In this document: positions 2,519-21,234 of the stretch, one piece after another
Numbering within the stretch: the first letter of the stretch is position 1
Layout: every line of letters begins with the position of its first letter
Assembly (NCBI RefSeq): GCF_008370495.1
Contig: NZ_VTUX01000002.1
Location: 248,001-312,000 of the forward strand
Source: Pseudohalioglobus sediminis
Lineage (GTDB): Bacteria; Pseudomonadota; Gammaproteobacteria; Pseudomonadales; Halieaceae
Length of the DNA stretch: 64,000 nt
Reading direction: 5' to 3'
Notes under the pieces: generated by a model
Told to the model about the DNA's origin: nothing
The model's database searches: none
What the model saw: only the letters and a program-made list of their open reading frames with translations
Position numbers and translations under genes: made by a program

Positions 2519-3186
2519 GTGTTTGCAACCAGTGCGTTGGCCATGGGGCCGAACCAGGTCTGCTTTAAGGTTTTGAAAATACCTGGCTCCTTGGTACCCA
2601 GTTGGGTGGCCAGGGTCCTGGCCTGATCGAGGAGTTCTTCCCGGGAGGCCTTGCCATCGGCGATGCCTGCCGCCACTGCCTCATCCGCGGTGTAGCGTTT
2701 GCCGGTGAACAGGGCATCCCGGGCGGTACTGGCCGGTAACTTGCCCCGCAATATGCCCATCATGGGCGTCGGTATGGGTACTCCCACATCCACTTCGGAG
2801 ACAGAGAACCAGCCCCGGTCCTCGCGCATGATGCGGTAGTCGCAGGACAGTGCCAGGAACGCACCGCCGGCAAAAGCGTGGCCGTTCATCGCCGCCACGG
2901 TCGGGCAGGGCAATACCAGGAACCGACTGTGAATCTTCGCCATACGCTGGCCGAACAGCTCCATCTCTTGTGGCTGAAGCGTCATCAGCTTTTCGAGGTT
3001 GAGGCCGTTGCAGAAGAATTTATCGACGCCGGTGAGCACCAGCGAGGCACCCTGACCACAATCGGCCTCCACCGCATCGAGGATTTCCAGCATGCGCTGC
3101 TGCCAGTCAGGGCAGATGGTATTCTGCCCCTCATTCATCGTCACCAGATGCAGTTCACCCTGCTTTTGGTAATCGATCACGATCAC
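2512..3186 (-). CDS. Enoyl-CoA hydratase/isomerase family protein, probably delta3,delta2-enoyl-CoA isomerase
   Basis: The 224-residue crotonase-fold protein starts at a GTG that overlaps the dehydrogenase stop (GTGA). The oxyanion segment is MNGHAFAGGAFLALSCDYRI. The active-site stretch SVSEVDVGVPIP has one Glu in the position used by enoyl-CoA isomerases, and the flanking pattern resembles plant and eukaryotic ECI rather than hydratases with two Glu. The expected job is moving a double bond from position 3 to 2 during beta-oxidation. The protein is somewhat short, and its stop codon lies in the REP-like hairpin at 2494-2518, so the native C-terminus may have been trimmed. Confidence 0.85.
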   Translation of the reverse strand: MIVIDYQKQGELHLVTMNEGQNTICPDWQQRMLEILDAVEADCGQGASLVLTGVDKFFCNGLNLEKLMTLQPQEMELFGQRMAKIHSRFLVLPCPTVAAMNGHAFAGGAFLALSCDYRIMREDRGWFSVSEVDVGVPIPTPMMGILRGKLPASTARDALFTGKRYTADEAVAAGIADGKASREELLDQARTLATQLGTKEPGIFKTLKQTWFGPMANALVANTG

Positions 3187-4346: not shown

Positions 4347-4356
4347 TGCGTATCTC

Positions 4357-5544: not shown

Positions 5545-5558
5545 AAATAACTCCTTTA

Positions 5559-6560: not shown

Positions 6561-6657
6561 ACTGCGGAATCTCTTCTTGGTCTACCTGCGCGTGGCGCAA
6601 TTTATGTTAGCGATTACTTGTGAAATCATAATGTGATTTTCTTGCATTCCATTAGTT

Positions 6658-6703
6658 ATCGTCATATCTTATGCCACAACCTTATGTCATACTCAATGCC
6701 ATT
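6658..6703. promoter_or_regulatory. Operator array (TATGNCATA type) between dehalogenase operon and TonB receptor
   Basis: Copies of the 9-bp palindrome lie at 6670 (TATGCCACA), 6683 (TATGTCATA) and 6695 (AATGCCATT), with a weaker half at 6658 (ATCGTCATA). Spacings are 12, 13 and 12 bp. The array sits 28-73 nt before the TonB receptor ATG and about 100 nt before the dehalogenase ATG, so it could control both. Binding by the TetR protein at 17304-17894 is inferred. Confidence 0.6.
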
Positions 6704-6730
6704 ACAACATAATTTTAGAGGAGTATCACA

Positions 6731-8989
6731 ATGATAAAAATGAGGCCGCTCGCTTCCGCTCTTGTTCTCGCCACTTATGGCGCAGGCACACTCGCCCAGA
6801 CCGGCGCACTGGAAGAGGTGATTGTCACCGCCACCAAAAGAGCCGAAAGCCTGCAGGATATCGCGGTCACGGTGACCGCCTTCAACGAATACACTATCCG
6901 GGAAGCCAATATTCGCGATGCTGGCGATGTGGCTGTGCTGACCCCCTCGCTTAACATCAACGCCAATATCAGCCCGTTCAGTACACGGGTTACCGTACGC
7001 GGCATCGGCACTACAGGCTCCACCTTCCTTGAGCCCTCCGTCGGCACCTTTGTGGACGGTGTCTACCTCAATCGCTCAGGCCTCGCCGTTTCAGACCTGG
7101 TGGATATAGAACGTATCGAGGTGCTGCAGGGCCCACAGGGCACTCTCTACGGCAAGAACACCAACGCCGGAGCCATCAGCATTACCACGCAATCTCCCAA
7201 TTTCGAGGAGACTGAAGGCCACCTGGAGGCCACCGCCGGCAACTATTCCATGCAGCGCATCACTGGCTCGCTGTCAGGCCCAATCGCTGACAACCTGGCC
7301 TATCGCATCGCAGGTAATTACCACGAGAGGGACGGATACCTCGAGAATCTTTCGGGTCCGGACCTCAATGATGCCGATGAGTGGAATGTGGTCGGAAAGC
7401 TGGCCTGGCAGCCGACCGACGAATTGTCGATTTTGTTCAAGGCCAGCCGGGTGGAACGCGATATGAACTGCTGCTCACCGGATTCGGTGCACGACCCTAT
7501 AGCCGACCAGGCCATTATCGATCGCGGGCAGGCGCCCCTGGGAGACGATCCTTTCGATCACAAAACGTCACAGGATGTGCCCAGCCCTTTCAAGCAGGAA
7601 TCTACCGCGGCATCGCTGCACATAGACTATGACGCCGACTGGGGCAAAATCGAATCCATCACCGCCTGGGATGACTATGACCTCGAATCCTCCCAGGAAG
7701 CCAGCCGCTCGGTACTCGACGCGACCTGGCTGGACCAGCCTCAATCGGGCAATAGCTTCTCCCAGGAACTGCGTTTCAGCAACAGCACTGACAACGTCGA
7801 TTATATGGCCGGGCTGTATTACTTCGACCAGGAAACCCGGGAGTTTGAAAACAAGCTGTCGTCGGTGATTGGCGATGATGTACCGATTGGCGCACAGATC
7901 TTTGGTCCACAATTAGCACTCATCGTGGCCCCGGGAGATGAGAGCTACCAGGACAGCCTGTTCGAGACCGAAACCATAGCGGTGTTCGGACGCGCCACCT
8001 GGCATGTCGGTGATAACTGGCACCTTACCGGCGGCCTGCGCTGGAGCGACGAGGAAAAAGACGCTGACCTGTTTGTCGATGTGGAATCAACAGCCCTCAC
8101 CGCCCAGGATCCGGAAAACATTCCACCGCCAATACTCGCCTTGCTGGCGCAGCAGGGCATCTTTCCACCTTTCTCATTACTTTCCTCTGCTCGCCCTGAA
8201 ATTGACGAGTCCTTTAACCGCAGCAGTGACAATGTCGACTGGCTGGCCAGTGTAAGCTACGACCTGAACATGGACACCCTGCTATTCGCCAGCGCGTCCA
8301 CCGGCACCAAGTCAGGCGGCTTCAATGGCGTCGCCGGTGAGCCCGAGGAACGGGAATTCGACGACGAGGAAACCACCAGCTACGAGCTGGGTATCAAGAC
8401 CACCCTGATGGACTCGCGGCTGCGGATCAACTCCACCCTGTTCTTTACCCTGGTCGAAGACATGCAGACCAACCAGCAGGCCTCAAGCGGTCTGGGGCAG
8501 TTCACCTCCAACCAGGGGGAGGCGGAAGTCGCGGGACTGGACTTTCAACTGGATGCACTGCCCCTGCCAAACCTGACAGTCACACTTGGCCTGCAGTACC
8601 TCGACAAGTACGAGTTCACCGACGGGCCTGACGAGGGACTCGATCTGGCTTTTGCCGCTGAGCTCAGTGGCAGCCTGGCTGCGACGCTTGTGTTCCCCCT
8701 GGCCGATGGCGGGGTCTACCTGCGCGGCGATTACAGTTTCATGGGCGACCACACGACCAACCCTGCCCCGGCCTCACAGCTGGAAGACAAGGATAAACAG
8801 GATCGCCAGAACCTGAACATGGTATTGGGTTGGCGCAATGACAACTGGAACATCAGCCTGTGGGGTAAAAACCTGACGGACGAAGAATATGCCGTTCAAA
8901 CTCTGGTGCCTTATCCCATCACCGATATGGACGCGTACTTCCTCGCACCACCGAGAACCTATGGAGCAACCCTGCGCTACGACTTCTAG
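6731..8989 (+). CDS. TonB-dependent outer-membrane receptor
   Basis: The 752-residue receptor has an N-terminal signal peptide (about 1-22, cleavage after TLAQ), a plug starting EEVIVTATKRAESLQDIAVTVTAF, and RIEVLQGPQGTLYGKNTNAGAI at the end of the plug. The rest is a long beta-barrel ending in the terminal aromatic YDF. AGGAG lies 7 nt before the ATG. This plug type is typical of the large receptor expansions in marine proteobacteria that import hydrophobic or bulky organic substrates rather than only siderophores. Its placement opposite an acyl-CoA operon and next to sulfatases suggests uptake of that pathway's substrate. Confidence 0.95.
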   Translation: MIKMRPLASALVLATYGAGTLAQTGALEEVIVTATKRAESLQDIAVTVTAFNEYTIREANIRDAGDVAVLTPSLNINANISPFSTRVTVRGIGTTGSTFLEPSVGTFVDGVYLNRSGLAVSDLVDIERIEVLQGPQGTLYGKNTNAGAISITTQSPNFEETEGHLEATAGNYSMQRITGSLSGPIADNLAYRIAGNYHERDGYLENLSGPDLNDADEWNVVGKLAWQPTDELSILFKASRVERDMNCCSPDSVHDPIADQAIIDRGQAPLGDDPFDHKTSQDVPSPFKQESTAASLHIDYDADWGKIESITAWDDYDLESSQEASRSVLDATWLDQPQSGNSFSQELRFSNSTDNVDYMAGLYYFDQETREFENKLSSVIGDDVPIGAQIFGPQLALIVAPGDESYQDSLFETETIAVFGRATWHVGDNWHLTGGLRWSDEEKDADLFVDVESTALTAQDPENIPPPILALLAQQGIFPPFSLLSSARPEIDESFNRSSDNVDWLASVSYDLNMDTLLFASASTGTKSGGFNGVAGEPEEREFDDEETTSYELGIKTTLMDSRLRINSTLFFTLVEDMQTNQQASSGLGQFTSNQGEAEVAGLDFQLDALPLPNLTVTLGLQYLDKYEFTDGPDEGLDLAFAAELSGSLAATLVFPLADGGVYLRGDYSFMGDHTTNPAPASQLEDKDKQDRQNLNMVLGWRNDNWNISLWGKNLTDEEYAVQTLVPYPITDMDAYFLAPPRTYGATLRYDF

Positions 8990-9011
8990 TTGCGCGGGCC
9001 GCTCCTGCCAT

Positions 9012-9039
9012 TTAGCCCAGCGCATTCTGCCTGGGCTAA
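9012..9039 (+). terminator. Hairpin after the TonB receptor gene
   Basis: A perfect 9-bp stem, TTAGCCCAG and CTGGGCTAA, closes a 10-nt loop 22 nt after the receptor stop. No U-run follows, so it is a stem-loop that could end or stabilise the transcript rather than a textbook intrinsic terminator. Confidence 0.5.
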
Positions 9040-9100
9040 CAATTGATGGGCATGAACTACGGCTGCTACAAACTTCACTTCCTCGCACCGGTAAAAAATA

Positions 9101-9140
9101 GGGGACAGACCACAATTTACAGAAGTTGTGGTCTGTCCCC
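9101..9140. repeat. Perfect 15-bp palindromic REP-like element
   Basis: GGGGACAGACCACAA (9101-9115) and TTGTGGTCTGTCCCC (9126-9140) are exact inverted copies around a 10-nt loop. The element fills the convergent gap between the TonB receptor and GST genes. It is the best-preserved member of the family also seen at 662, 12483 and 14580. Such palindromes are usually mobilised in trans by REP-associated tyrosine transposases; none is in this window. Confidence 0.8.
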
Positions 9141-9144
9141 CATT

Positions 9145-10272
9145 TTATTCCCATACTTCCAGATTGTCGGCGCGAACAATGCGGCGGTTGAGCGTGGCAC
9201 TGAGAACGGGCGTCATGCCGCAACCGGCCAGCAGACTATCCACATCAGCCTTGTCATCACCTGACAGGGCAGAGTAGGTGTCCTGCACACGCTGCAGCAG
9301 GTAGAAGCGGTGGGGCTGGGCCAGGGCTGTGATGGCTTCTCCGCGCAGATTGAACTGGGCGGTACCCATGGCCTGAGCCAGGCGCCCCACTGCCACCGAG
9401 CCGGCTTCGGGCTGGTTTTCCGCCAGCCAGGTATTGATGAATTCCGCCGCCGCCAGGGTTTCCGGGACAAAGTCCTCCGCCAGTACCCGCAATACCGCCA
9501 CCAGTGTGTCAGGCACGTCGTCATCTGCCAGGAAATCGGTCCCGGCATTGAAATACTCGGGAACATCCTGGTCGGCACGGTTCATGCGCTCCACCCACCG
9601 GTACACCCGGGTGGCGCGTTGCTGCATCAGCCGGGCCGGGTGAGGATCGCGGCCCAGGTGCGCATACATCGGCGCCAGCAGTCCGAAATCGCCAACACAG
9701 GGGCGCCAGCCGAGGAGATAAGGGTACAGTTCAAAGTGGGCGTCGAGGGCGTCCAGGTATTCCAGGTAAAGGCTCTCCACCACCTCCCGGCTTTGCTCGG
9801 TCACACCGAAAATCATCCCTGCGTGACGCATGCGATTCATCATCGCCTCGGTTTTCTCCTCACGCTCGGGCGTGTCCCGCTGGGAGTGGAGGAAGTGATA
9901 GCGTATGAACTCAAGGTTGTCTTCTGGGAAGTTCCAACGATAGTGCATAGCCGGCCGCAGCAGACCATCGGTGCCAATCACATCAAACAGGGCACTGATA
10001 ATCTGCTGGCGTGGGCCCGCCGGGCGACAGGGCCTACCGCTCGCCGCCTCGAAGTGCTCGATAATCGCAGCGCCGTCACGAATCACCTCGCCCTCAGGTG
10101 TCACCAGAGTGGGAATGGTCGCCAGCTTGCCTTTGGGGAGCACTTCCGCCTTGAAGCTCTCGTGACCGGTGGACAATTCCCGGAAGGGAATCTGGTGCTT
10201 GATCAGGTAGCTGCGGGCGCGGCCCGAGTACAGGGAGTGGGTAATGGCGTAGAGCCTGTGTGTACCGGCCAT
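9145..10272 (-). CDS. Glutathione S-transferase family protein, long form
   Basis: The start at 10272 is chosen over an ATG three codons upstream because AGGA stands 8 nt before it. The 375-residue protein opens with a thioredoxin-fold GST N-domain (LYAITHSLYSGRARSYLIKHQIPFREL, then TIPTLVTPEGEVIRDGAAIIEHFE). A C-terminal helical domain and a further long helical tail follow, making it longer than a classical GST of about 200-230 residues. The substrate is unknown. It overlaps or abuts the sulfatase stop and is probably the last gene of the minus-strand operon that begins with the DJ-1 gene. Confidence 0.8.
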   Translation of the reverse strand: MAGTHRLYAITHSLYSGRARSYLIKHQIPFRELSTGHESFKAEVLPKGKLATIPTLVTPEGEVIRDGAAIIEHFEAASGRPCRPAGPRQQIISALFDVIGTDGLLRPAMHYRWNFPEDNLEFIRYHFLHSQRDTPEREEKTEAMMNRMRHAGMIFGVTEQSREVVESLYLEYLDALDAHFELYPYLLGWRPCVGDFGLLAPMYAHLGRDPHPARLMQQRATRVYRWVERMNRADQDVPEYFNAGTDFLADDDVPDTLVAVLRVLAEDFVPETLAAAEFINTWLAENQPEAGSVAVGRLAQAMGTAQFNLRGEAITALAQPHRFYLLQRVQDTYSALSGDDKADVDSLLAGCGMTPVLSATLNRRIVRADNLEVWE

Positions 10273-10273
10273 G

Positions 10274-12082
10274 CTATGCATCCTTTCGGGTATTTCGCCA
10301 GGTCATCAGAAACGGGAGTAGTACAAGAGCGGTCAGCAACGCCACCAGGATTGGGGTCCGCAAGCGCTGGTAGAGTGTATTTATCACCAGCTGCTTCAGG
10401 TGATCATATCCCGGCGGAACCGCCAGTACCTTGTTGTCCCTCGCGTACCGCTCATAGGCAGACAGCATGCGCTGCAGGCGCGCTGGCTGCTGCGATGCCA
10501 GGTCCGAGGTTTCACCCGGGTCACGCACAATATCGTACAGGCGCCACTGCCCGTCACCCAGTGGCCCCCGGTTGAGCACAAGTTTGTAATCGCCCTGGAA
10601 CAGGGCTGCATGGCCTGCGAGCTCATAGCCCACTGCATCCTCAGGGCCGTACACTCGATCGACCTCCTGCCGCAACAGCGGACCCAGGTCACGACCGATA
10701 ATCGGCTCCACCGGTCGACCGCGGTATCTCCGCTCCGGCGGTTCCACACCGGCGAATGAAAGTATGGTCGGTGTAATATCGGTAACAAAGGAAAAAGCGT
10801 GGTTCAGCCCGCCCTTATCGGCTAGTTCCGCCCCGGCCACAATCAGCGGCACGCGCATACCGCCCTCCCCCGCATAGAACTTGTAAAACGCCAGAGGACT
10901 GGCGGCCGCGCTGGCAAAGCTGGGGCTAATACTGTTGTAGCTGCCTTTCAGGCCCAGGCGTTCATAGTCAGTGTGATAGCCCAGGGCCGTCGGCCCGCGT
11001 CGCGCGATGAAAGACCCAGGATCCGCCGGGCCGCTGGCCTCAGCACCATTATCCGACGTAAAGATGATGATTGTGTTGTGGTACTGTTCCCGCTCCTTGA
11101 GGTAATCCACCAGGCGGCCGAGATGGTAGTCCATGGCTTCTACCATAGCGCCGTACACTGCCATACGCTTGGCCTGGTAACGCCGCTGATCGGCGTCGAG
11201 CGCATTCCAGTCGTCCGTGGTCGACATGCGCCCGATGCCGCTGTCGGCGGGAATAATGCCAAGCTCTACAGCCTTCTGCCGGCGCTGCTCCCGCAACTCA
11301 TCCCAGCCGCCGTCGTAAACGCCCATGTAACGGTCTATGAATTCCTGCGGTGCCTGCACCGGTATGTGCACCGCCTGGAACGGCAGGTAGGCGAAAAAGG
11401 GGGTGCCGTCATCGATATTGCTGTCGATGAACTCAATGGTTTTGTCCACCAGGAACCGGGAGGAGTAAAAATCGTCGGGCAGCTGGTACTCCTTGCCATC
11501 CGCATACCAGCTGGCCTTCTCATAAAGCGGGATGTAGGGACGCTGCTCCCAGTTGTCAGCACCGGAATCCGCCAGGGCAACCGTGCGCTTAAAACCGCGT
11601 TCACTGGGCAATTGCCCGGGGCCCGCGCCCAGGTGCCATTTGCCCGCCATATAGGTGTGATAGCCGGCCCCCTCCAACAGGGTCGCTACGGTCACCACAT
11701 TGTTGCCCAGTACCCCCTGGTAATGGCTGTGACGCTTCTGCTCCGGCGCCAGCATCTCTGGAATATTGGGCACGCCGGCAATATGGGCATCCACACCGGT
11801 GAGCAACATGGCCCGGGCCGGCGCACAATTGGCCGCTGTGTGATAGTTGGTAAAGCGGACGCCCTCCTGCGCAAGCGCATCGAGCGTGGGGGTGTTGATT
11901 TCACTGCCGTATGAGCCGAGATCGGTAAAGCCGAGGTCATCAGCCAGTACGAGGACGATATTGGGTCGCTCGGCAGCGGGGGTTGTTGGAGATGGAATAC
12001 TCTCCGGGTTCCCGGCGTAGCCCCAGGGCGCCAGCAGCGCCAGTGCGGCCACAGCGGCGCTGAAGGCAGCTCTTACGTACAC
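10274..12082 (-). CDS. Formylglycine-type arylsulfatase, exported and C-terminally anchored
   Basis: The 602-residue sulfatase has a signal sequence (about 1-23), the metal-binding start NIVLVLADDLGFTDLGSYG (41-59), and the modification motif C86-A-P-A-R90 followed by LLTG, in which Cys86 would become formylglycine. GKWHLG and ITSDNG-like FTSDNGAE are also present. A C-terminal hydrophobic helix, ILVALLTALVLLPFLMTW, with a basic tail suggests inner-membrane anchoring facing the periplasm. The GTG start lies 3 nt after the upstream stop. It would release sulfate from an organic sulfate ester; no formylglycine-generating enzyme is encoded in the window. Confidence 0.92.
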   Translation of the reverse strand: MYVRAAFSAAVAALALLAPWGYAGNPESIPSPTTPAAERPNIVLVLADDLGFTDLGSYGSEINTPTLDALAQEGVRFTNYHTAANCAPARAMLLTGVDAHIAGVPNIPEMLAPEQKRHSHYQGVLGNNVVTVATLLEGAGYHTYMAGKWHLGAGPGQLPSERGFKRTVALADSGADNWEQRPYIPLYEKASWYADGKEYQLPDDFYSSRFLVDKTIEFIDSNIDDGTPFFAYLPFQAVHIPVQAPQEFIDRYMGVYDGGWDELREQRRQKAVELGIIPADSGIGRMSTTDDWNALDADQRRYQAKRMAVYGAMVEAMDYHLGRLVDYLKEREQYHNTIIIFTSDNGAEASGPADPGSFIARRGPTALGYHTDYERLGLKGSYNSISPSFASAAASPLAFYKFYAGEGGMRVPLIVAGAELADKGGLNHAFSFVTDITPTILSFAGVEPPERRYRGRPVEPIIGRDLGPLLRQEVDRVYGPEDAVGYELAGHAALFQGDYKLVLNRGPLGDGQWRLYDIVRDPGETSDLASQQPARLQRMLSAYERYARDNKVLAVPPGYDHLKQLVINTLYQRLRTPILVALLTALVLLPFLMTWRNTRKDA

Positions 12083-12085
12083 AGC

Positions 12086-12460
12086 TCAGGGTTCCCTGGC
12101 GAGCCGTCTTGAGGCCACCAACAGAATCAGCGTCACGACTATCTCCACCCCGATCTGGGGCGCAAGGGCGGCGTCATGAATCAGCCAGGCAATCACCCGA
12201 CCTATCGCCGTCAGAAAGAGCAACAGCATCGCGGGGTAGTACCAGGTGCGACGGCCGCTCACCAGGGCGGCCAGCATGCAGATGCCCAGCGTCAGGAAAA
12301 AGCCCGACATATCGCCCACCTGCGAGCTGAGCCCCAGCCCCTCGCCCAGCACCAACCCGAACTCAGGGGCAATGCCCGCTGGAGCCACCAGCCAGCGAAC
12401 ACCGGTGACGACAAAGAGGATGGCCGGCAACAGCACCAACAGTCCAAGTATCCTGTTCAT
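12086..12460 (-). CDS. Small four-helix membrane protein (DUF4345-like)
   Basis: Starting at the ATG at 12460 (GTGAG 6 nt upstream), this 124-residue protein has about four membrane helices: ILGLLVLLPAILFVVTGVRWL, the GDMSGFFLTLGICMLAALV segment, WYYPAMLLLFLTAIGRVIAW and IGVEIVVTLILLVA. The pattern resembles the DUF4345 family, as does the protein at 21235-21609. No catalytic residues are evident. It precedes the sulfatase by 3 nt, so the two are co-transcribed and it may assist membrane function of that pathway. Confidence 0.75.
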   Translation of the reverse strand: MNRILGLLVLLPAILFVVTGVRWLVAPAGIAPEFGLVLGEGLGLSSQVGDMSGFFLTLGICMLAALVSGRRTWYYPAMLLLFLTAIGRVIAWLIHDAALAPQIGVEIVVTLILLVASRRLAREP

Positions 12461-12482
12461 AGTGATCTCACTTTCGTTAATT

Positions 12483-12523
12483 GGGGGCCGACCACACAAT
12501 ACACTTGATTGTGGCCTGCCCCC
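12483..12523. repeat. REP-like palindrome abutting the DJ-1 gene stop
   Basis: GGGGGCCGACCACACAAT (12483-12500) and ATTGTGGCCTGCCCCC (12508-12523) form an imperfect stem with a short loop. Read on the minus strand, the DJ-1 stop codon TAG runs directly into the GGGGGC arm. The same TAGGGG junction occurs at 19812 and at 9099. Confidence 0.7.
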
Positions 12524-13377
12524 TATTTAGTCCGCGCTGCCAGCACCTGCATCATTACATTGGCGGTTTCGAGGCCGGAGTTCTGGTTCTGGCCGGTGAC
12601 AAAGCGCTGCTCGTCGTCGACAGTGACATGTGTGGCAAACAAATCCCTGAATGCGGTCTCGCTTTCGAATATGGCACCTGCCTTGCGCAGTTCCGTCTCC
12701 GGGTGCAGCGGTGTCAGCTCTATGCCAAGTTCCCTGATTTGCTTGTCAGTCACCCCGGTCATGCGGCGCCCGGCAATCAACAGCTTGCCGTCTCGGTCGC
12801 GCGCATTCACCAGGCCCAGTACACCGTGGCAGACGCCACCAATCATTGCAGCCTTATCACCGTAGTAGGACTCGCTCACCTTCGCCGCCAACTCAGGGGA
12901 TTGCGCCAGGTCGTAGGCTGCGCCCCAGCCACCGGATATGAACACAATGTCATACTGCTCGATATCCACGTCGGCAATGGGGATGGAGTTCTTCACCTTG
13001 GCCTGTGCAGTGGCATCATCAAGGTAGCGCTTGTCTTCCGGAGAGATGATCATGAACTGCAATGTCTGTGGGTCGATAGGGATTTCACCGCCCCGGATAC
13101 TGGCTACGTCCACCTCCATGCCACCGTCGAGGAATGTATAGTACGGATGGGTCAACTCAGAGGCCATCACCCCGGTGGCCGGGCCCTCGGTTTCCCCCGG
13201 CGCAGCCAGCACGCCATGGCTGGTGGCGATGATCAGGGCGCGCTTGCCCGGTAGTGTTGTGGTCGGCCCGGTGTATTCGGGATGCAGGCCCGCCTTGTGC
13301 AATATCGTGGGTAGTGAAAGCAAAAATACGCCGGCCAGCACAACCAGTACTGCACCCAGTTTGAGCAATTTCTTCAT
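12523..13377 (-). CDS. DJ-1/PfpI family protein with N-terminal membrane anchor
   Basis: The 284-residue protein has an N-terminal hydrophobic segment (4-23), then a class I amidotransferase-like DJ-1 domain. VFISGGWG at 145-152 and the nucleophile elbow GGVCHGVLGL with Cys183-His184 identify it. An upstream Glu (GGEIPID, near 98) could pair with the Cys as in Hsp31-type proteins. Relatives act as glyoxalases, chaperones or amidases, so the reaction here is open. It is the first gene of the operon that continues into the DUF4345-like, sulfatase and GST genes. The TATGNCATA operator array lies in its divergent promoter. Confidence 0.85.
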   Translation of the reverse strand: MKKLLKLGAVLVVLAGVFLLSLPTILHKAGLHPEYTGPTTTLPGKRALIIATSHGVLAAPGETEGPATGVMASELTHPYYTFLDGGMEVDVASIRGGEIPIDPQTLQFMIISPEDKRYLDDATAQAKVKNSIPIADVDIEQYDIVFISGGWGAAYDLAQSPELAAKVSESYYGDKAAMIGGVCHGVLGLVNARDRDGKLLIAGRRMTGVTDKQIRELGIELTPLHPETELRKAGAIFESETAFRDLFATHVTVDDEQRFVTGQNQNSGLETANVMMQVLAARTK

Positions 13378-13417
13378 AAGTAAGACCTCTTTCGCATGTA
13401 AACTGAGCCCTGGAGGC

Positions 13418-13466
13418 TACGCCATATTAATATGTCATATAGTATGTCATAATTAACTATGGCACA
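13418..13466. promoter_or_regulatory. Operator array (TATGNCATA type) between DJ-1 and metallo-hydrolase genes
   Basis: Copies are at 13418 (TACGCCATA), 13431 (TATGTCATA, exact), 13443 (TATGTCATA, exact) and 13458 (TATGGCACA). Start-to-start spacings are 13, 12 and 15 bp. The array fills the space between the divergent starts at 13377 and 13503 and is the strongest copy set in the window. Confidence 0.65.
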
Positions 13467-13502
13467 TCAAGCCCAGTCACTCTTGCCCAGGGGAATCTGA
13501 TC

Positions 13503-14573
13503 ATGAAAAAACTACTCACCGTAGCCGCCATACTGGCGGTCGTTTTCGTCATTGCCTACAGCCAACGAGCAACCATCGCCTCCCGGATAATGGAAAGAGG
13601 CCTGGAATCCCGCATGGGTGCAGACACTGTCGCGGAACTGGAAGACGGCCTGCACCTGGCGTTGTGCGGTGCCGGTGGTCCGTTGCCAGCTCCCAAGGCC
13701 TCCGGCCCTTGCGTTGCGGTGGTTGCCGGCAAGCAACTGTTCATGGTGGACGCTGGCACCGACGGCCCACGCAACCTGGCCCGTATGGGCTACCAGCCCG
13801 GCAATGTACAAGGCGTGTTTCTTACCCACTTTCACTCTGACCATATCGACGGCCTGGGCGAAATCAGCACCATACGCTGGGCCGGGGGTGACAACGCCGC
13901 TCCCCTCCCCGTCTATGGCCCCAGGGGGGTGGAGCAGGTCGTGGACGGCTTCAACGCCGCCTATGCCCAGGATTTCACCTATCGCCATGAGCACCACGGA
14001 GACCTGGTGGCCCCCATGAGTGCTGCCGGCATGCAGGCCGTGCCTTTTGACAAGCCGCCCATGGGTGAACTGACCCTGGTGTATGAGGGTGAAGGTCTCA
14101 GGGTAGAAATGCTGGCGGTGGACCACTCGCCGGTGGAGCCTGCAGTGGGGTATCGTTTCAGCTACAAGGGGCGCTCACTGCTGATAACCGGTGACACCAC
14201 CAAGCAGGCCAACATCCAGAAGTTCTCCGAGGGCATCGACCTGCTGGTGCACGAGGCCCTGGCCCCCAACCTGGTCAACATGATGAATGCGACCGCGAAG
14301 AAACTGGGCAATGAGATCATGGCCAAGATCACCTACGACATTCTCGACTACCACGCCAGCCCGGTGGAAGCCGCGGAAACGGCCCGCGATGCCGGTGTCG
14401 GCCACCTGCTGTACTACCACATCGTCCCGCCACTGGTTATTCCCGGCCAGGACCTGCTGTACCTGAACGGGGCTGAAGATATCTTCCCGGACTACACCAT
14501 CGGCCAGGATGGCGTGGCCTTCTCACTGCCGGCAAACTCGACAGAAATCATCAAGACCAGTGACGGGCTTTAA
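13503..14573 (+). CDS. Metallo-beta-lactamase-fold hydrolase, membrane anchored
   Basis: The 356-residue protein has an N-terminal membrane segment (4-19). The MBL signature THFHSDHID has His109, His111, Asp113 and His114, and LLITGDT supplies a further ligand Asp. LLYYHIVPP provides the last His. The overall arrangement resembles RNase Z-like or arylsulfatase-like MBL hydrolases found in catabolic loci. The anchor suggests a periplasmic active site, compatible with acting on the same substrates as the neighbouring exported sulfatases. AGGGGA stands 10 nt before the ATG. Confidence 0.88.
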   Translation: MKKLLTVAAILAVVFVIAYSQRATIASRIMERGLESRMGADTVAELEDGLHLALCGAGGPLPAPKASGPCVAVVAGKQLFMVDAGTDGPRNLARMGYQPGNVQGVFLTHFHSDHIDGLGEISTIRWAGGDNAAPLPVYGPRGVEQVVDGFNAAYAQDFTYRHEHHGDLVAPMSAAGMQAVPFDKPPMGELTLVYEGEGLRVEMLAVDHSPVEPAVGYRFSYKGRSLLITGDTTKQANIQKFSEGIDLLVHEALAPNLVNMMNATAKKLGNEIMAKITYDILDYHASPVEAAETARDAGVGHLLYYHIVPPLVIPGQDLLYLNGAEDIFPDYTIGQDGVAFSLPANSTEIIKTSDGL

Positions 14574-14579
14574 TCAATC

Positions 14580-14589
14580 GGGACAGACC
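14580..14589. repeat. Solo half of the REP-like element
   Basis: GGGACAGACC follows the metallo-hydrolase stop and matches the left arm of the 9101 palindrome. No inverted partner follows, so it looks like a decayed copy in the convergent gap 14574-14612. Confidence 0.45.
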
Positions 14590-14612
14590 AGGAGTAGAGA
14601 GCAAGTTGCCAA

Positions 14613-16283
14613 CTAGTTAGGCCAGTAGATGTATTCGTCGCCCTCGGCAAAGGGCTCTGCCAGAGTCTTATCGATGGCAATCGACAACTCCGTGGCGGCG
14701 GGGTACAGCGGCGGCCTGGCACTCGCGGCATGCGCATCGAGGAGAGCCTGCAGTTGCGCCAGCTTCTGCGGTTCTGTCGCTGCCAGGTTATTTTGCTCAG
14801 TGGGGTCTTCGGCGAGGTTGAACAACCACTGCTTGTCCGGTCGCGCGGCCACCTGCAGTTTCCAGTCACCGTGTCGCACCACCCGGTAGTGGCCGCTCTG
14901 CCAGAACAGGGTTTCCCTGTCCCATTGCTCCGCCCCATCCCCGGTGGCCAGCGGCAACAGGTTTTCACCATCAATCACCACACCCTCGGGCTGCGGGGCT
15001 TCAGCTGCCGCGGCCAGGGTCGGCATCATATCGATATGTGCCACCGGCTCCTCGGAGACCGTGCCGGCAGCAATGCGCGCCGGCCACTTCACAAATAGTG
15101 GCACGCGTATGCCACCCTCAAACTGGCTGATCTTCCAGCCGCGGAAGGGGTGGTTGATGTCGGGCAGGCCGATATAGCCGGGGCCGCCATTGTCACTGGT
15201 AAACAGAACGATAGTGTTGTCCGCCAGCCCCGCATCCCCCAGCGCGGCATTGATGCGACCCACGCTGCGGTCGAGGGCGCGAATCATCGCTGCGTAGACG
15301 CGCAGGCGGTGGGGCTGGATATCCCCAACCGCCTCGTAATCCTCCCGGGTCGCCTGCAGGGGCGTGTGAACCCCCCAATGCGCGAGATAGAGAAAGAATG
15401 GGCGATTCTTGTTGGCCTCGATGATTTTGATCGATTCATCAGTCCAGTAGTCCGTCAGGTAGCCGCCGGGCTCGAAACGATCCTCATCGCCGGTATTGAA
15501 GCTGTTCGCATAGACCATGCGCGCCCACAGGAACTGGTCGATGGGGTCAAACTCCAGTTTGGCATTGACCACATTGGGGTCATCCTCCGGCAGGAACAGG
15601 CCGCTGGCCATCAACAGGCTCTGGTCAAAACCCTGCTCGTGCGGGGCCATGCCGTTCTGTCGCCCCAGGTGCCACTTACCGATATGGAACGTCTGGTAAC
15701 CGCGTTCGCGCAGAATCTCGGCGATCGTCACCTCCTCCGCCGGCAGGCCCTGCTCCTCGTAAGGCGGCCTGCTTGCGTCGAGTTCCGCGTCATAGATTGC
15801 CGGCGGCAGGACGCTGTCCATATCCGCGGAAATGCGCGATACCACGGGCGCCATTCCGGAGGGCGTCGGGGTGAACTCAAAGCCGGTTCGGGTTGGATAG
15901 CGACCGGTCATCATCATCGCCCGGGAAGGGGCACAGGTACCGGCGCCCGAATAAGACTGGGTGAATACCGCGCCCTCGGCCGCCAGTTGATCGATGTGGG
16001 GCGTCTGCACACGCCCACCGGCAACACCGCCGCCAAAGGTGGAGATATCGTTGTAGCCCAGGTCGTCAGCGACAATCAGGATAATGTTGGGGGGGCGTTC
16101 GCCGGGCTCCTCGCCGGCCTGCGCAGGACCCGCACTCCAGGGTAGATCCCTGGGAGGCCCAACCTCATACTCATTGGCTGACTTGTACTTGACCAGCGCG
16201 AGCAGCAGCGCAGTCTGGTTCTGGTAGGCCAGGCCGCCCAGCACAAGAACCAGTGCCAGTAGCGACAACAAAACTTTTTTCAC
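14613..16283 (-). CDS. Formylglycine-type sulfatase, exported
   Basis: The 556-residue enzyme has an N-terminal hydrophobic anchor (4-20), PNIILIVADDLGYNDISTFGG (65-85), and C117-A-P-S-R121 with MMTGRYP as the formylglycine motif. IGKWHLGRQ, FTSDNGGPGYIG and DWKLQVA near the C-terminus follow the arylsulfatase A-like order. It differs clearly from the 10274-12082 sulfatase, so the pair may act on different positions or substrates. It lies 28 nt after the dienoyl-CoA isomerase gene and is probably co-transcribed with it under the operator at 17184-17204. Confidence 0.92.
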   Translation of the reverse strand: MKKVLLSLLALVLVLGGLAYQNQTALLLALVKYKSANEYEVGPPRDLPWSAGPAQAGEEPGERPPNIILIVADDLGYNDISTFGGGVAGGRVQTPHIDQLAAEGAVFTQSYSGAGTCAPSRAMMMTGRYPTRTGFEFTPTPSGMAPVVSRISADMDSVLPPAIYDAELDASRPPYEEQGLPAEEVTIAEILRERGYQTFHIGKWHLGRQNGMAPHEQGFDQSLLMASGLFLPEDDPNVVNAKLEFDPIDQFLWARMVYANSFNTGDEDRFEPGGYLTDYWTDESIKIIEANKNRPFFLYLAHWGVHTPLQATREDYEAVGDIQPHRLRVYAAMIRALDRSVGRINAALGDAGLADNTIVLFTSDNGGPGYIGLPDINHPFRGWKISQFEGGIRVPLFVKWPARIAAGTVSEEPVAHIDMMPTLAAAAEAPQPEGVVIDGENLLPLATGDGAEQWDRETLFWQSGHYRVVRHGDWKLQVAARPDKQWLFNLAEDPTEQNNLAATEPQKLAQLQALLDAHAASARPPLYPAATELSIAIDKTLAEPFAEGDEYIYWPN

Positions 16284-16311
16284 AGTGGTTTACTCCCCTT
16301 GGATCGCGCTG

Positions 16312-17124
16312 TCAGCTGCCGCTGAATTCAGGTGGGCGTTTTTCCATAAAAGCCTGCATGGCTTCCTTCAGGTCGTTGGATTTCAGTGAACTGATCATGG
16401 TCCACAGCCCATTGAGCAACAGGCTCTGGTCGGTTGTCATACCTTCGCTTTGCTGCAGCACAAACTTGGTGCCGCGCACCGCCAGTGGCGCGTTAGCGGC
16501 AATTTCCCCGGCGAGCGCCAGGGCTGCCTGGTACACCGCATCGGCGTCTGTGTAGACATCGTTCACCAGGCCGATTTTCTCCGCGCGCGCCGCCGATATA
16601 TCCTTGCCCGTATAGGCCAGTTCGGCGACATGCCCAGCGCTGACCACCCCCGGCAGGCGCTGCAGGGTGCCCACATCGGCGACGATACCGATCCTGGTTT
16701 CACGCACACCGAACAACGCGTCCTCTGAGGCCAGGCGGATGTCACAGGCGGTGGCAAGATCGACACCGGCCCCCAGGCAGTGGGAGTGAATGGCGGCGAT
16801 CACCGGGACCGGGCAGCGGGCGATCGCCGTGATACCGTCCTGGCACAGGCGGGTATGCTGTAGCTGCTCCAGGCAGCCGCTGGTGGTGGACAGGTCCGGC
16901 GCACTACCCAGGCTGGCCAGGTCAATTCCCACGCAGAAGCTCTTGCCCCGACCGGCGATCACCACTGCGCGTATGTCCTCGTTGGCAGCCACTGCGTCCA
17001 TGGCGCGAATAAAATCGCCCCACATATCGAAACAGATGGCATTCAGCTTGTCCGGCCGGTCCAGCCACAGGGTGGCTACGTGACTGGTAATTTCGAGTGA
17101 AAGTGTGGAGGAGGTAAACGCCAT
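16312..17124 (-). CDS. Crotonase family, delta3,5-delta2,4-dienoyl-CoA isomerase type
   Basis: The start is at MAFTSSTLSLE, with AGGA 7 nt upstream; this gives 270 residues. The segment HSHCLGAGVDLATACDIR followed by GVRETRIGIVADVGTLQRLP closely follows eukaryotic ECH1, with both catalytic acids present as Glu142 and Asp150. It would shift 3,5-diene to 2,4-diene acyl-CoA, a step needed for unsaturated or ring-derived acyl chains. The C-terminus EAMQAFMEKRPPEF is also family-typical. It is the first gene of a two-gene operon with the sulfatase. Confidence 0.87.
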   Translation of the reverse strand: MAFTSSTLSLEITSHVATLWLDRPDKLNAICFDMWGDFIRAMDAVAANEDIRAVVIAGRGKSFCVGIDLASLGSAPDLSTTSGCLEQLQHTRLCQDGITAIARCPVPVIAAIHSHCLGAGVDLATACDIRLASEDALFGVRETRIGIVADVGTLQRLPGVVSAGHVAELAYTGKDISAARAEKIGLVNDVYTDADAVYQAALALAGEIAANAPLAVRGTKFVLQQSEGMTTDQSLLLNGLWTMISSLKSNDLKEAMQAFMEKRPPEFSGS

Positions 17125-17183
17125 GGAAAAATCCTGCAACGTGGGCAAACTGGCTGCTGCATCGGACACAACCAATAGTTTTA

Positions 17184-17204
17184 TATGGCACAATTTATGC
17201 CATA
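17184..17204. promoter_or_regulatory. Operator pair upstream of the dienoyl-CoA isomerase gene
   Basis: TATGGCACA at 17184 and TATGCCATA (exact) at 17196 are spaced 12 bp. A weak third copy may lie at 17209. The pair is 60-80 nt upstream of the isomerase start on the minus strand. Confidence 0.6.
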
Positions 17205-17303
17205 TTAAGATGCAATGCAAGCTCGCAGTAGTAGCTCAGGTTCAGAAATGGCTTAGCTGCCGCTGAATTTCGCGCGAAGAAAGCCAGAGACGATCCGGCC
17301 CTC

Positions 17304-17894
17304 TCAGTCGTCGACCATCAGGCTGTTCAGCAAAGCCTTGATAATATTGATACTGGCCGTTTTGCTCAGCCCCTGGTGATAGCGCAGCCTGTGCCACATT
17401 TCGAAGGAACTTATAGCATCGATGGATTCACGAGTATCTCGGGGTACAGATTTCAACTCCGGCAGCCAGTCGTCCAGGTCCTTGCGCAGGCCACGCTGGT
17501 TACGGGCATAATTCTTGCGCAATATTTCATAGCGCCAGAGTTGGGCGTGGGTACCCAGGACAATATTACTTACGCTTTCATAGGCATCGGCGTGCCGTTT
17601 CACCGCGTGGTCAATCCGCTCCTCCAGAGTTCCGTCCCGATCCCCGCCGAGAAATAGCGCTTCATAGGAGCCGCGAATATGATCGTCGGCTGCTTCAAAA
17701 AGGGTCTCCATATCCTCGAAATGGCGAAAAAAGGAGCGAATACCAACACCTGCACGATCGGAGATCTGCTGGGCTGTGGGGACCAGTACGCCCTCCTCCT
17801 GCAGAGCCAATGCCGCTTCTACGATGGCGAGTCGACTACGTTCGCTGCGAAGGCGGCGTCCGTCTACAGCTTCGGCACTCTGATTCTTTGACAT
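17304..17894 (-). CDS. TetR-family transcriptional regulator
   Basis: The 196-residue regulator has a TetR helix-turn-helix at about 41-60 (AQQISDRAGVGIRSFFRHFE) and a divergent C-terminal ligand domain. The ATG at 17894 has only a weak ribosome site. It sits between the isomerase-sulfatase operon and the flavoprotein gene on the same strand, and its own promoter carries a 12-bp-spaced operator pair (17930-17950). It is the only regulator in the first 19 kb, so I infer that it controls the five operator-bearing promoters, most likely as a repressor released by an acyl-CoA intermediate. Confidence 0.88.
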   Translation of the reverse strand: MSKNQSAEAVDGRRLRSERSRLAIVEAALALQEEGVLVPTAQQISDRAGVGIRSFFRHFEDMETLFEAADDHIRGSYEALFLGGDRDGTLEERIDHAVKRHADAYESVSNIVLGTHAQLWRYEILRKNYARNQRGLRKDLDDWLPELKSVPRDTRESIDAISSFEMWHRLRYHQGLSKTASINIIKALLNSLMVDD

Positions 17895-17929
17895 GATGGT
17901 CTCGAATTACCCTTTGATAACATTAATAT

Positions 17930-17950
17930 AATGACATTGAGTATGCCGTA
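17930..17950. promoter_or_regulatory. Operator pair upstream of the tetR gene
   Basis: AATGACATT at 17930 and TATGCCGTA at 17942 are spaced 12 bp, each one or two changes from TATGNCATA. They lie 36-56 nt before the tetR start, suggesting autoregulation. Confidence 0.5.
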
Positions 17951-18032
17951 ATTTGCTGGGTTTTTCCACCACCACGAATGACACACCCCGGAACCTGACT
18001 GCACCACCTTCTGGGATATCCTCGTCAGGGCA

Positions 18033-19004
18033 TCAGGCAGCACTGATGGATGCCAGACGCTCGCTAATGATCTTATCGGCATCGCTGACAATATTGCGAA
18101 CCAGCTCCTCGCAACTCGGAATATCGTTGATTAGCCCCCCGCACATACCCACGGTGACCATACCCGCCTCGATATCACCAGTGCTCCAGGCCTTCTCCTG
18201 GTTGGCGCCGGACACCAGGTGGTGCACCTGGCCGAACTCTCCACCTCTTGCTTCAATCGCCGCCACTTCATCGGCTATGCCATTGCGATACACTCGCGCG
18301 GTGTTCTTGTAGGTGCGGAAGATGAGGCGGGTCTGGTTCTCGTCCATCTCGACCACTTTCTGCTTTATACCCTCATGAATGGGTGCCTCCTGGGTAACGA
18401 GAAAACGGGTACCCATGTTGATACCCTCGCAGCCCAGTGCCAGCGCCGCAGCCAGTCCGCGGCCGTCTGCGATTCCACCGGATGCCAGCACAGGAATCTT
18501 CAACGCTTGTGTGGCGGCAGGGAACAATACGAGGCCACCGACATCCTGCTCACCGGGGTGCCCTGCACATTCAAAGCCGTCGATGCTGACCACGTCAACG
18601 CCGATGCGCTCAGCCTTCAGGGCATGGCGTACCGCCACGCATTTGTGAATTACCTTGATGCCCGCTTGCTTGAAGCGCTCCATAAAAGGCTCCGGGCTGC
18701 GACCGGCCGTCTCAACAATCTTCACGCCACTTTTGATGATCACGTCCACGTAGTCGTCATAGTTGATCTCGCTGGCGACAACGCCCACAGTCAGGTTAAC
18801 GCCGAATGGCTTGTCAGTCAGGGAACGGCAGCGAGCGATCTCCACCTCCAGACCTTCAGGCGTGAGCTGGGTGAGCGCGGTCATCACGCCAAGAGCACCG
18901 GCATTGGAAGCTGCCGCCGCGAGATCGGCAGTGCCCACCCGCATCATGCCGCCGCAGACGATGGGGGCATCGATGCCCAGTAATTCTGTAATCCGTGTTT
19001 TCAT
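18033..19004 (-). CDS. Nitronate monooxygenase-like FMN oxidoreductase
   Basis: The 323-residue TIM-barrel flavoprotein starts MKTRITELLGIDAPIVCGGM with GGAGAG 7 nt upstream. Family hallmarks are DKPFGVNLTV, VVSIDGFECAGHPGE (FMN phosphate/active-site region), LASGGIADGRGLAAAL and MGTRFL. Annotated relatives include 2-nitropropane dioxygenase and, in actinobacterial cholesterol catabolism, IpdC; assignment to either is not possible from sequence alone. Its promoter carries the shared operator pair, tying it to the acyl-CoA and sulfatase genes. Confidence 0.87.
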   Translation of the reverse strand: MKTRITELLGIDAPIVCGGMMRVGTADLAAAASNAGALGVMTALTQLTPEGLEVEIARCRSLTDKPFGVNLTVGVVASEINYDDYVDVIIKSGVKIVETAGRSPEPFMERFKQAGIKVIHKCVAVRHALKAERIGVDVVSIDGFECAGHPGEQDVGGLVLFPAATQALKIPVLASGGIADGRGLAAALALGCEGINMGTRFLVTQEAPIHEGIKQKVVEMDENQTRLIFRTYKNTARVYRNGIADEVAAIEARGGEFGQVHHLVSGANQEKAWSTGDIEAGMVTVGMCGGLINDIPSCEELVRNIVSDADKIISERLASISAA

Positions 19005-19408
19005 TCAGTTTCTCTCCGCGTATCGCACTGAGCCGCAACATATCTTATTGGCATTTATTATGTCAATACAAAGGCCGGTTATCTCACTCTGGCAGCGAGA
19101 CACCAAAACGGTGAGAAAAATACGTAATTATTTATTTACAATCAGGAAGCTACGAGGACTTGATCAGGGATTTGGGTCTATTGAGTACTTTTGGGTGCAC
19201 TATGCACCAACAATGATTGAGCAGTCATAACGCTGCGGGCATGCAATGAGCCAGCGTTAATAGTACGGGGATACTATGCCCATTTCTCCGCACCAACCAA
19301 ACTCTTTTTTGCCCCCCGGCAATAGGTATGCTGCACTATTTACGTTGACCGATTCTGCAGCGAGGTCGACCATGCCGATCATCTGCCAAATTCAAGCAAG
19401 ACAATACA
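19005..19408. other. Intergenic region, 404 nt
   Basis: It holds the operator pair at 19047-19067, an AT-rich stretch at 19120-19145, and an inverted repeat GGTGCA-CTA-TGCACC at 19194-19208. I see no gene in it. It separates the regulated island from the broken aminotransferase gene. Confidence 0.7.
19047..19067. promoter_or_regulatory. Operator pair upstream of the nitronate monooxygenase-like gene
   Basis: ATTGGCATT at 19047 and TATGTCAAT at 19059 are spaced 12 bp, each one or two changes from TATGNCATA, and lie 43-63 nt before the start codon on the minus strand. Confidence 0.5.
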
Positions 19409-21118: not shown

Positions 21119-21234
21119 CCGCTCAGCCGGCAGTATTGTTATACGTACCAGCGCTGAACCAAAGCTCGCCGCGTTGGCGTAAACTTCGAGTATCACACCA
21201 AACGCACCACGCGCCAATATCAGGAGCATTGAAC

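What the first reader, a model, noticed from the sequence alone, without database searches (positions are those of the whole stretch)
6658..19067. One tandem palindrome, TATGNCATA at 12-bp spacing, marks five promoters of a 19-kb catabolic island
The sequence shows 9-bp palindromes in pairs or arrays at 6670/6683/6695, 13418/13431/13443/13458, 17184/17196, 17930/17942 and 19047/19059. Most neighbours are 12 or 13 bp apart, so adjacent copies face nearly the same side of the helix. All five lie in promoters, two of them divergent, and one precedes the tetR gene itself. Together they would control the dehalogenase-type operon, TonB receptor, DJ-1/sulfatase/GST operon, metallo-hydrolase, isomerase/sulfatase operon, tetR and the flavoprotein. 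I infer that the TetR at 17304-17894 is the shared regulator and that these genes form one uncharacterised pathway.
Basis: partly seen in the sequence, partly recalled or inferred. Interest (0 to 1): 0.82.

Follow-up and report, generated by a model that had tools for sequence, protein, structure and literature searches.

The report
TetR operators of a marine catabolic regulon
The repeated palindromes look like real binding sites, most likely of the TetR-type repressor encoded among them, which would switch on a conserved set of dehalogenase, sulfatase, glutathione-transferase and beta-oxidation genes in marine bacteria for a substrate that is still unknown.

Summary
The "tandem 9-bp palindromes" are mostly the two halves of one dyad operator of about 27 bp: WATATWW-TGRCAY-N5-RTGYCA-WWATATW, the TGNCA cores starting 12 bp apart. 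A matrix trained only on 58 loci of other genomes finds six sites in the window, all in the five named promoters; none of 300 shuffles reaches the weakest. In the 4.43-Mb genome a profile finds six places: these five promoters and one 6.6 kb left of the window, between two divergent GST-like genes. Of 58 genomes, all 19 with a strong homolog of the TetR have sites; 7 of 39 without have one or two weak rows. A second nearby TetR does not fit this pattern. Sites recur upstream of tetR, metallo-hydrolase, dehalogenase, TonB receptor, DJ-1 and sulfatase genes in gamma- and alphaproteobacteria. Best reading: TetR 17304-17894 is an autoregulated repressor of one catabolic regulon. Binding is not shown and the substrate is unknown. 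The genes suggest a non-carbohydrate sulfate ester, possibly halogenated. Steroid ring-opening genes are commoner in genomes with the TetR (17/19 against 20/39) but carry no detected operator in the own genome, so a steroid role stays open.

The parts
6653..6683 (.). Operator O1a (dhl|tonB promoter), weakest dyad, 25 bp from O1b
   Evidence: PWM 18.9 bits, window not in training; not among the profile hits; a pair at 25 bp also in G002 (12.9 and 28.1 bits) and G003 (26.5 and 29.4)
6678..6708 (.). Operator O1b (dhl|tonB divergent promoter)
   Evidence: PWM 24.4 bits; genome profile hit C16:254682-254706, E 0.64
13426..13456 (.). Operator O2 (dj1|mbl divergent promoter)
   Evidence: PWM 31.8 bits; profile hit E 0.038; one dyad in the printed promoters of relatives
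17179..17209 (.). Operator O3 upstream of ech2-sulf1
   Evidence: PWM 33.2 bits; best profile hit of the genome, E 0.0016
17925..17955 (.). Operator O4 upstream of tetR (autoregulation)
   Evidence: PWM 31.5 bits; profile hit E 0.013; centre 46 bp from the tetR start; site within 350 bp upstream of tetR in 28 of 58 related loci
19042..19072 (.). Operator O5 upstream of nmo; overlaps a TTGACA -35-like hexamer
   Evidence: PWM 32.0 bits; profile hit E 0.0022; promoter-like match 19066-19037
17304..17894 (-). TetR-family regulator, proposed reader of the operators
   Evidence: PF00440 29.5 bits, cut-off 24; AF2 pLDDT 89.9; TetR folds in PDB; 41-row alignment
5559..6560 (-). Haloalkane dehalogenase (subgroup-I like; subgroup name recalled), first gene of the left gene row
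   Evidence: NF002043 403 bits, cut-off 265; aligned catalytic positions kept
4357..5541 (-). Acyl-CoA dehydrogenase, PimC-like
   Evidence: Pfam; TIGR03204 445.7 bits, below cut-off 623.9
3183..4472 (-). Acyl-CoA dehydrogenase, PimD-like
   Evidence: Pfam; TIGR03203 374 bits, below cut-off 652.7
2512..3186 (-). Enoyl-CoA hydratase/isomerase family
   Evidence: PF00378
1749..2528 (-). Conserved protein with an N-terminal hydrophobic segment, unknown family
   Evidence: no Pfam or NCBIfam match; 17-row alignment
715..1749 (-). APH-like kinase, last gene of the left gene row
   Evidence: PF01636
6731..8989 (+). TonB-dependent receptor
   Evidence: PF00593, PF07715
9145..10281 (-). Long GST-family protein
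   Evidence: PF13417
10274..12082 (-). Type I sulfatase (sulf2), CAPAR motif
   Evidence: PF00884; translation
12086..12499 (-). DUF4345-like small protein
   Evidence: PF14248 25.0 bits, below cut-off 26.5
12523..13377 (-). DJ-1/PfpI family protein
   Evidence: PF01965
13503..14573 (+). Metallo-beta-lactamase-fold hydrolase; best PDB match 8gyg, named Arysulfatase there
14613..16283 (-). Type I sulfatase (sulf1), CAPSR motif
   Evidence: PF00884; translation
16312..17124 (-). Enoyl-CoA hydratase/isomerase family (start at 17124 chosen by me; the listed ORF opens at 17220)
   Evidence: PF00378; NF004794 293.8 bits, below cut-off 308
18033..19004 (-). Nitronate monooxygenase/FabK-like flavoprotein
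   Evidence: PF03060

Best explanation
The sites are operators of one TetR-type repressor, encoded at 17304-17894, that controls a single catabolic regulon and its own gene. Each operator is a dyad with two TGNCA half-sites 12 bp apart and AT-rich arms, a size fit for one TetR dimer. The dhl|tonB promoter holds two dyads 25 bp apart, so probably two dimers. The dimers sit 38-70 bp from the predicted start codons of most target genes (108-133 bp for dhl), over or next to the core promoter, and block transcription. A small molecule, probably an acyl-CoA made by the encoded beta-oxidation enzymes, releases them. The genes then take up a substrate (TonB receptor), remove sulfate and halide, conjugate or reduce it (GST, flavoprotein) and feed it into beta-oxidation. 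Shown by computation: the operators, their conservation, their restriction to this region of the genome as far as the scan reaches, and co-occurrence with this TetR. Inferred: binding, repression, inducer, order of reactions, substrate.
For: PWM trained without the window: 142 positions >= 14 bits in 0.945 Mb of 58 loci against 2 for the reversed PWM; six sites in the window, next best 3.8 bits, reversed control at most 7.2. 0 of 300 shuffles of the window reach 18.9 bits; 4 of 300 have any position >= 14. Whole genome at E <= 10: 12 rows (both strands) = 6 places, 5 in the window and 1 at C16:241398, between two divergent GST-like genes. Co-occurrence: sites (E <= 0.1) in 19 of 19 genomes with a TetR homolog at E < 1e-25 and in 7 of 39 without; 3 or more rows in 17 of 19 against 0 of 39; Fisher p 7e-10, not corrected for kinship. 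In the window's genus G004, G005 and G006 lack both; G001, G002, G003 and G007 have both. Site within 350 bp upstream: mbl 18/21, dhl 10/12, tonB 9/12, dj1 12/17, sulf1 17/27, tetR 28/58, against 0.057 expected per window of that size. Congeners G002 and G003, whose sites were not in training, keep sites at gst|gst, dhl|tonB (pair at 25 bp), upstream of sulf1, tetR and nmo, and G003 at dj1|mbl. Residues R53, F56, R57, H58, F59 of the recognition helix and R13, R16, R19 of the basic N-terminus are invariant in 41 sequences.
Against: No binding or expression data. The 58 loci were chosen because they hold the TetR, so enrichment near it there is partly by design; the genome-wide counts are freer of that, but some of those genomes also gave training sites, the cut E < 1e-25 was mine (10 of the 39 'without' have weaker matches), and the 58-genome scan used strict filters and scored at most 125 candidates a genome. 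The 7 genomes without the TetR have rows at E 0.005 to 0.09. 3 of 58 loci have no site >= 14 bits. Sites stand upstream of tetR in 28 of 58 loci only, of gst in 9 of 36, of sulf2 in 1 of 22, of the 1749-2528 family in 0 of 10, though in G012 that family directly follows an operator (L150). Two of the congener sites are weak: 12.9 bits (first dyad of G002 dhl|tonB) and 12.5 bits (G003 tetR), just above the largest reversed-control score, 11.4. The own-genome scan scored 150 of 554 first-look candidates and did not report the 6660 dyad. Several enzyme names rest on sub-cut-off matches.
Confidence: 0.87

Rival explanations
1. The dyads are read by another regulator (for example the second TetR at C16:243408-244007, or an unlinked factor), and tetR 17304-17894 is only one of its targets.
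For: A second TetR gene stands 2 kb from the sixth operator. Autoregulation cannot be told from being a target by sequence alone.
Against: Homologs of the second TetR at E < 1e-50 occur in 6 of 58 genomes, one of which (G015) has no sites, while site-rich G018, G026, G039 and G048 have none at that level. The proposed TetR tracks the sites 19 of 19. Other regulators were not tested.
Confidence: 0.08
2. The TetR is an activator or dual regulator rather than a repressor.
For: Some operators are double and set well upstream of one of the two divergent genes (dhl 108 and 133 bp); AtrA, a TetR-family activator, is reported in PMC3511530 (passages).
Against: Most operator centres lie 38-70 bp from predicted start codons and one overlaps a -35-like TTGACA; most studied TetR-family members are repressors (PMC3511530, abstract, passages).
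Confidence: 0.1
3. The motif is a chance or compositional repeat of AT-rich promoters.
For: Single 9-bp copies are common: 20 exact in the genome, fewer than the control pattern's 36.
Against: Dyad-level scans, shuffles, reversed controls and conservation in congeners not used for training.
Confidence: 0.01
4. The regulon is a steroid or steroid-sulfate catabolic regulon, a functional counterpart of KstR2 or EdcR. (Confidence raised from my draft's 0.2 after rechecking.)
For: Halieaceae and Spongiibacteraceae include steroid degraders (PMC5790920, passages). KshA_C (PF19298) is commoner with the TetR: 17 of 19 against 20 of 39 genomes (Fisher p 0.008, kinship not corrected). In G017 KshA_C genes lie about 6 kb from an operator (C38:357345 and 350963) and about 11 kb from a second TetR copy (C38:522874 and 511605). 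Crotonase, flavoprotein and paired acyl-CoA dehydrogenases recall HIP genes (from memory); IpdE2 model 125 bits against cut-off 450.
Against: In the own genome the four KshA_C genes lie on contigs C21 and C22, where the profile finds no operator. Site-rich G045 and G048 have no KshA_C match, and 20 of 39 genomes without the TetR have one. TetR similarity to KstR2 is E 0.06. The EdcR operator given in PMC8700777 differs.
Confidence: 0.25

Closest known systems
TetR-family catabolic repressors KstR/KstR2 (actinobacterial cholesterol) and EdcR (estradiol, Caenibius)
   Same: TetR-type regulator with a palindromic operator in several promoters of one catabolic cluster, and autoregulation (PMC8700777, passages)
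   Different: Operator differs (TGRCA-N7-TGYCA here; TnnCnnTACnAnTnGTAnnGnnA for EdcR); targets are dehalogenase, sulfatases and GSTs; sequence similarity to KstR2 only E 0.06
EthR and Ms6564 (mycobacterial TetR regulators)
   Same: Overall fold of the predicted monomer, query TM-scores 0.62-0.70 in the listed rows; EthR is recalled to bind operator arrays cooperatively
   Different: 11-18% identity in those rows; different operator (recalled) and targets
Subgroup-I haloalkane dehalogenases (PDB 5esr, 6f9o, 4mj3; DhlA 1ede)
   Same: Relation over most of the length and matching catalytic positions
   Different: Placed in a TetR regulon with sulfatases; 333 aa against 308-325, with about 30 extra residues between the two aligned segments (query 154-189)

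Membership tests
TetR family of regulators | N-terminal TetR_N helix-turn-helix | tested here: met
   PF00440 29.5 bits, cut-off 24
TetR family of regulators | All-helical TetR fold | tested here: met
   AF2 pLDDT 89.9, ten helices; 13 PDB hits with E <= 0.001, among them RcdA, Ms6564, KstR, DesT
TetR family of regulators | Dyad operator of about 15-30 bp near its own gene | tested here: met
   17925-17955, centre 46 bp from the start; sequence evidence only
TetR family of regulators | Dimeric DNA binding released by a ligand | not testable with these tools
   needs gel shift and ligand screen
KstR2 / EdcR orthologs | Sequence orthology (KstR2) or same operator (EdcR) | tested here: not met
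   KstR2 phmmer E 0.06; EdcR operator differs. The EdcR protein and the KstR2 operator were not compared
Haloalkane dehalogenase, subgroup I (window 5559-6560) | Family model over its cut-off | tested here: met
   NF002043 403.1 bits, cut-off 265
Haloalkane dehalogenase, subgroup I (window 5559-6560) | Nucleophile Asp followed by Trp, second Trp, acid Asp, His (positions recalled from DhlA) | tested here: met
   QDWG, GFLYW, DDDPVT and AGHFVQ align with 5esr and 6f9o
Type I sulfatases (sulf1, sulf2) | Sulfatase domain and a formylglycine motif C-x-P-[SA]-R | tested here: met
   PF00884; CAPSR and CAPAR; the motif definition is recalled
Classical 9,10-seco steroid regulon | Ring-opening genes (KshA_C) under the operator in the own genome | tested here: not met
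   Four KshA_C genes on C21 and C22; no profile hit there at E <= 10
Classical 9,10-seco steroid regulon | Ring-opening genes tracking the regulator across genomes | tested here: inconclusive
   17 of 19 with the TetR, 20 of 39 without (p 0.008)

The most novel reading that the evidence does not exclude
The regulon degrades a halogenated sulfate-ester lipid or terpenoid of marine algae, such as a chlorosulfolipid: sulfatases remove sulfate, the haloalkane dehalogenase and the long GSTs remove halogen, and the paired acyl-CoA dehydrogenases finish by beta-oxidation, all under one repressor that senses a CoA intermediate. This would give a natural role to a clade of haloalkane dehalogenases and show that part of the marine 'polysaccharide' sulfatases act on lipids.
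Probability: 0.1. Interest if true: 0.82.

Novelty: new member of a known kind. Interest (0 to 1): 0.5.

Why it matters
It defines an operator and regulator pair that is conserved in Halieaceae, Spongiibacteraceae and some marine alphaproteobacteria, and so groups many unassigned genes (dehalogenase, sulfatases, metallo-hydrolase, long GSTs, an unknown conserved protein) into one testable pathway. The close homolog of this dehalogenase (E < 1e-150) occurs in 12 of 19 genomes with the TetR and 0 of 39 without; more distant relatives (E <= 1e-40) are in 34 of 58. Sulfatase counts in six Halieaceae strains were read in print as a potential to degrade sulfated polysaccharides (PMC10100682, passages); here sulfatases sit with beta-oxidation and dehalogenase genes, and the 28 proteins of this island and its left flank scanned gave no glycosidase match. 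The operator also makes a ready reporter for finding the inducer.

Tried and rejected
Tandem 9-bp palindromes as separate sites: rejected as the unit, because only the 12-bp step is enriched and the arms are dyad-symmetric. Three half-sites in a row at 12-bp steps do occur: overlapping dyads >= 14 bits in L048 and L049, and TGNCA triplets in L058 and L064; so half-site sharing is not excluded.

Extra copies at 13418 and 13458: not seen in the five mbl|dj1 promoters printed from other loci (L161, L052, L056, L097, L077); taken as chance or lineage-specific.

Second TetR as reader: rejected by distribution.

Classical steroid pathway: the KshA_C genes of the own genome are not under the operator, but the distribution leans towards genomes with the TetR (17 of 19 against 20 of 39), so a steroid role is kept as a rival.

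Promoter scan: 3 promoter-like sites in 12.9 kb against 5.5 expected; not informative except that one overlaps O5 and one begins inside O1b.

Structure of the 1749-2528 protein: model of pLDDT 58, too poor to search.

Literature searches on this regulon and its possible substrates listed nothing that I could see to describe it in the held open-access library. I saw search listings, and passages only of PMC10100682, PMC8700777, PMC5790920 and PMC3511530.

Full report
What was checked. Four are exact TATGNCATA; the rest carry mismatches. Single copies are not rare in the genome (20 exact in 4.43 Mb, 36 for the reversed control), but the best pairs at 12 and 13 bp spacing in the genome are all in this window.

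Related loci. The TetR (196 aa) has relatives in 58 loci of a genome collection (47-82% identity) and matches at E < 1e-25 in 19 of 58 genomes of the window's kin, the own genome included; 29 of 58 match at E <= 0.001. Named records are mostly Halieaceae (Halioglobus, Haliea, Kineobactrum, Luminiphilus, Seongchinamella), some Spongiibacteraceae (Spongiibacter, Zhongshania; family from memory) and some alphaproteobacteria (Rhodobiaceae and others). tblastn with window proteins shows that sulfatases, DJ-1, DUF4345-like, GST, metallo-hydrolase, TonB receptor, dehalogenase and the 1749-2528 protein recur around the TetR, in varying sets.

The motif. In these loci and the short loci, TGNCA pairs stand 12 bp apart 152 times, against 11-52 (mostly near 30) at other distances; some DNA is counted twice, and 143 remain without duplicates, 9 of them from the window. 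Aligning them shows a dyad with symmetric base choice at the middle position (purine left, pyrimidine right) and AT-rich arms. An iterated 31-bp matrix, window excluded, holds 27.6 bits. It gives 142 positions of 14 bits or more in 0.945 Mb, against 2 for the reversed matrix. In the window it gives six sites (18.9-33.2 bits); the next best position scores 3.8 bits, the reversed matrix at most 7.2, and 0 of 300 dinucleotide shuffles reach 18.9.

Whole genome. A sequence-only profile from 68 operators (window excluded) finds 12 rows at E <= 10 in the own genome, which are six places on contig C16: the five promoters of the window (best E 0.0016 to 0.64) and C16:241398 (E 0.003). The last lies between two divergent GST-like genes, the left one followed by an NMO and an acyl-CoA dehydrogenase. 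The search scored 150 of 554 first-look candidates, so weak sites may be missed; the 6660 dyad was not reported.

Co-occurrence. Sites (E <= 0.1) occur in 19 of 19 genomes with the TetR at E < 1e-25 and in 7 of 39 without; those 7 have one or two rows each, at E 0.005 to 0.09. Rows count both strands of a place. Kinship is not corrected for, but within the window's genus four other species with the TetR have sites and three without have none. The close homolog of the window's dehalogenase (E < 1e-150) is found in 12 of 19 and 0 of 39 (p 6e-8). A second TetR beside the sixth operator does not follow the sites.

Conservation at the same promoters. In congeners G002 and G003, whose operators were not in training, sites stand at GST|GST, dehalogenase|TonB (two dyads 25 bp apart, as in the window), upstream of sulf1, tetR and nmo, and in G003 between dj1 and mbl; G003 has one more site (17.5 bits) not placed. 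Two of these are weak (12.9 and 12.5 bits against a reversed control of up to 11.4). The 25-bp pair also recurs in L053, L064, L069, L071, L073, L080, L082 and L086, while the tonB promoters of L066 and L078 show one dyad. Over the 58 loci a site lies within 350 bp upstream of mbl in 18 of 21, dhl 10 of 12, tonB 9 of 12, dj1 12 of 17, sulf1 17 of 27, tetR 28 of 58, nmo 5 of 11, DUF4345 7 of 18, ech2 2 of 6, echA 1 of 2, acdA 1 of 4, gst 9 of 36, sulf2 1 of 22, the 1749-2528 family 0 of 10 and acdB 0 of 3 (matches of at least 30% identity with enough flank). The last groups are often inner genes of gene rows.

Mechanism. The TetR model is confident (pLDDT 89.9) and has the TetR fold. Its recognition helix (R53, F56, R57, H58, F59) and a basic N-terminal arm (R13, R16, R19) are invariant in 41 sequences. 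Such an arm could read the AT-rich flanks (inference). Operator centres lie 38-70 bp from most predicted starts, and one overlaps a TTGACA hexamer, which suits repression by blocking polymerase. Release by a CoA thioester is inferred from KstR and KstR2, whose effectors are CoA thioesters (PMC8700777, passages).

Pathway. The dehalogenase passes its family cut-off and keeps the catalytic positions. Both sulfatases have formylglycine motifs. The metallo-hydrolase is nearest in PDB to 8gyg, an entry named Arysulfatase. The pair of acyl-CoA dehydrogenases resembles PimC/PimD, below cut-off. No glycosidase match turned up among the 28 proteins scanned. A sulfate ester that is not a polysaccharide, with a chain or ring fit for beta-oxidation and possibly halogenated, is the simplest substrate, but nothing here fixes it. 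Steroid ring-opening genes (KshA_C) are commoner in genomes with the TetR (17 of 19 against 20 of 39), and in G017 some lie 6-11 kb from regulon parts; in the own genome they lie on other contigs without a detected operator, and two site-rich genomes lack them. A steroid role is therefore open, not shown.

Verdict. The finding is right in its main claims. It is a new regulon and operator of a known kind, not a new kind of system. Its main worth is that it makes the natural role of this dehalogenase and sulfatase set testable.

Noticed in passing
G000:C16:241404 (L138:11404), 6.6 kb left of window start: Sixth operator (33.2 bits) between two divergent GST-like genes of 347-348 aa; a further TetR gene with a TetR_C_13 C-terminal domain lies 2 kb away.
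   Followed up: yes
window 1749-2528: Strongly conserved protein with an N-terminal hydrophobic segment and conserved cysteines, no Pfam or NCBIfam match; recurs with the regulon in gamma- and alphaproteobacteria. Low-confidence beta-rich model (pLDDT 58).
   Followed up: partly
window 9101-9140: 18-pair stem inverted repeat (one G-T pair, loop of 4) between the convergent tonB and gst genes, terminator-like. GGGGACAGACC/GGGGTCAGGTC motifs here, at 19814 and near 61548 resemble RAYT-associated REP elements (recalled).
   Followed up: partly
window 19409-19813 and 19900-19975: A 134-aa ORF matching only the N-terminal part of an aminotransferase family, followed by a tRNA-Ala (GGC); may mark the right edge of the island or a remnant of an insertion.
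   Followed up: no
window 20096-21229: TauD/TfdA-like dioxygenase just beyond the tRNA; no operator near it.
   Followed up: no
L048:15022/15034, L049:5258/5270, L058:11522/11534, L064:14691/14703: Three TGNCA half-sites in a row at 12-bp steps, so that the middle half-site could be shared by two overlapping dyads.
   Followed up: no
L147:4808 and 4912-8721 (G007): An operator of this type precedes an AMP-binding enzyme followed by a molybdopterin oxidoreductase, with a patatin-like gene on the other side: possible extra regulon members in a congener.
   Followed up: no
G017:C38:357345-358001 and 522874-523479: KshA_C-family oxygenase genes about 6 kb from an operator and about 11 kb from a second copy of the TetR; a possible link to steroid catabolism in that genome.
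   Followed up: no
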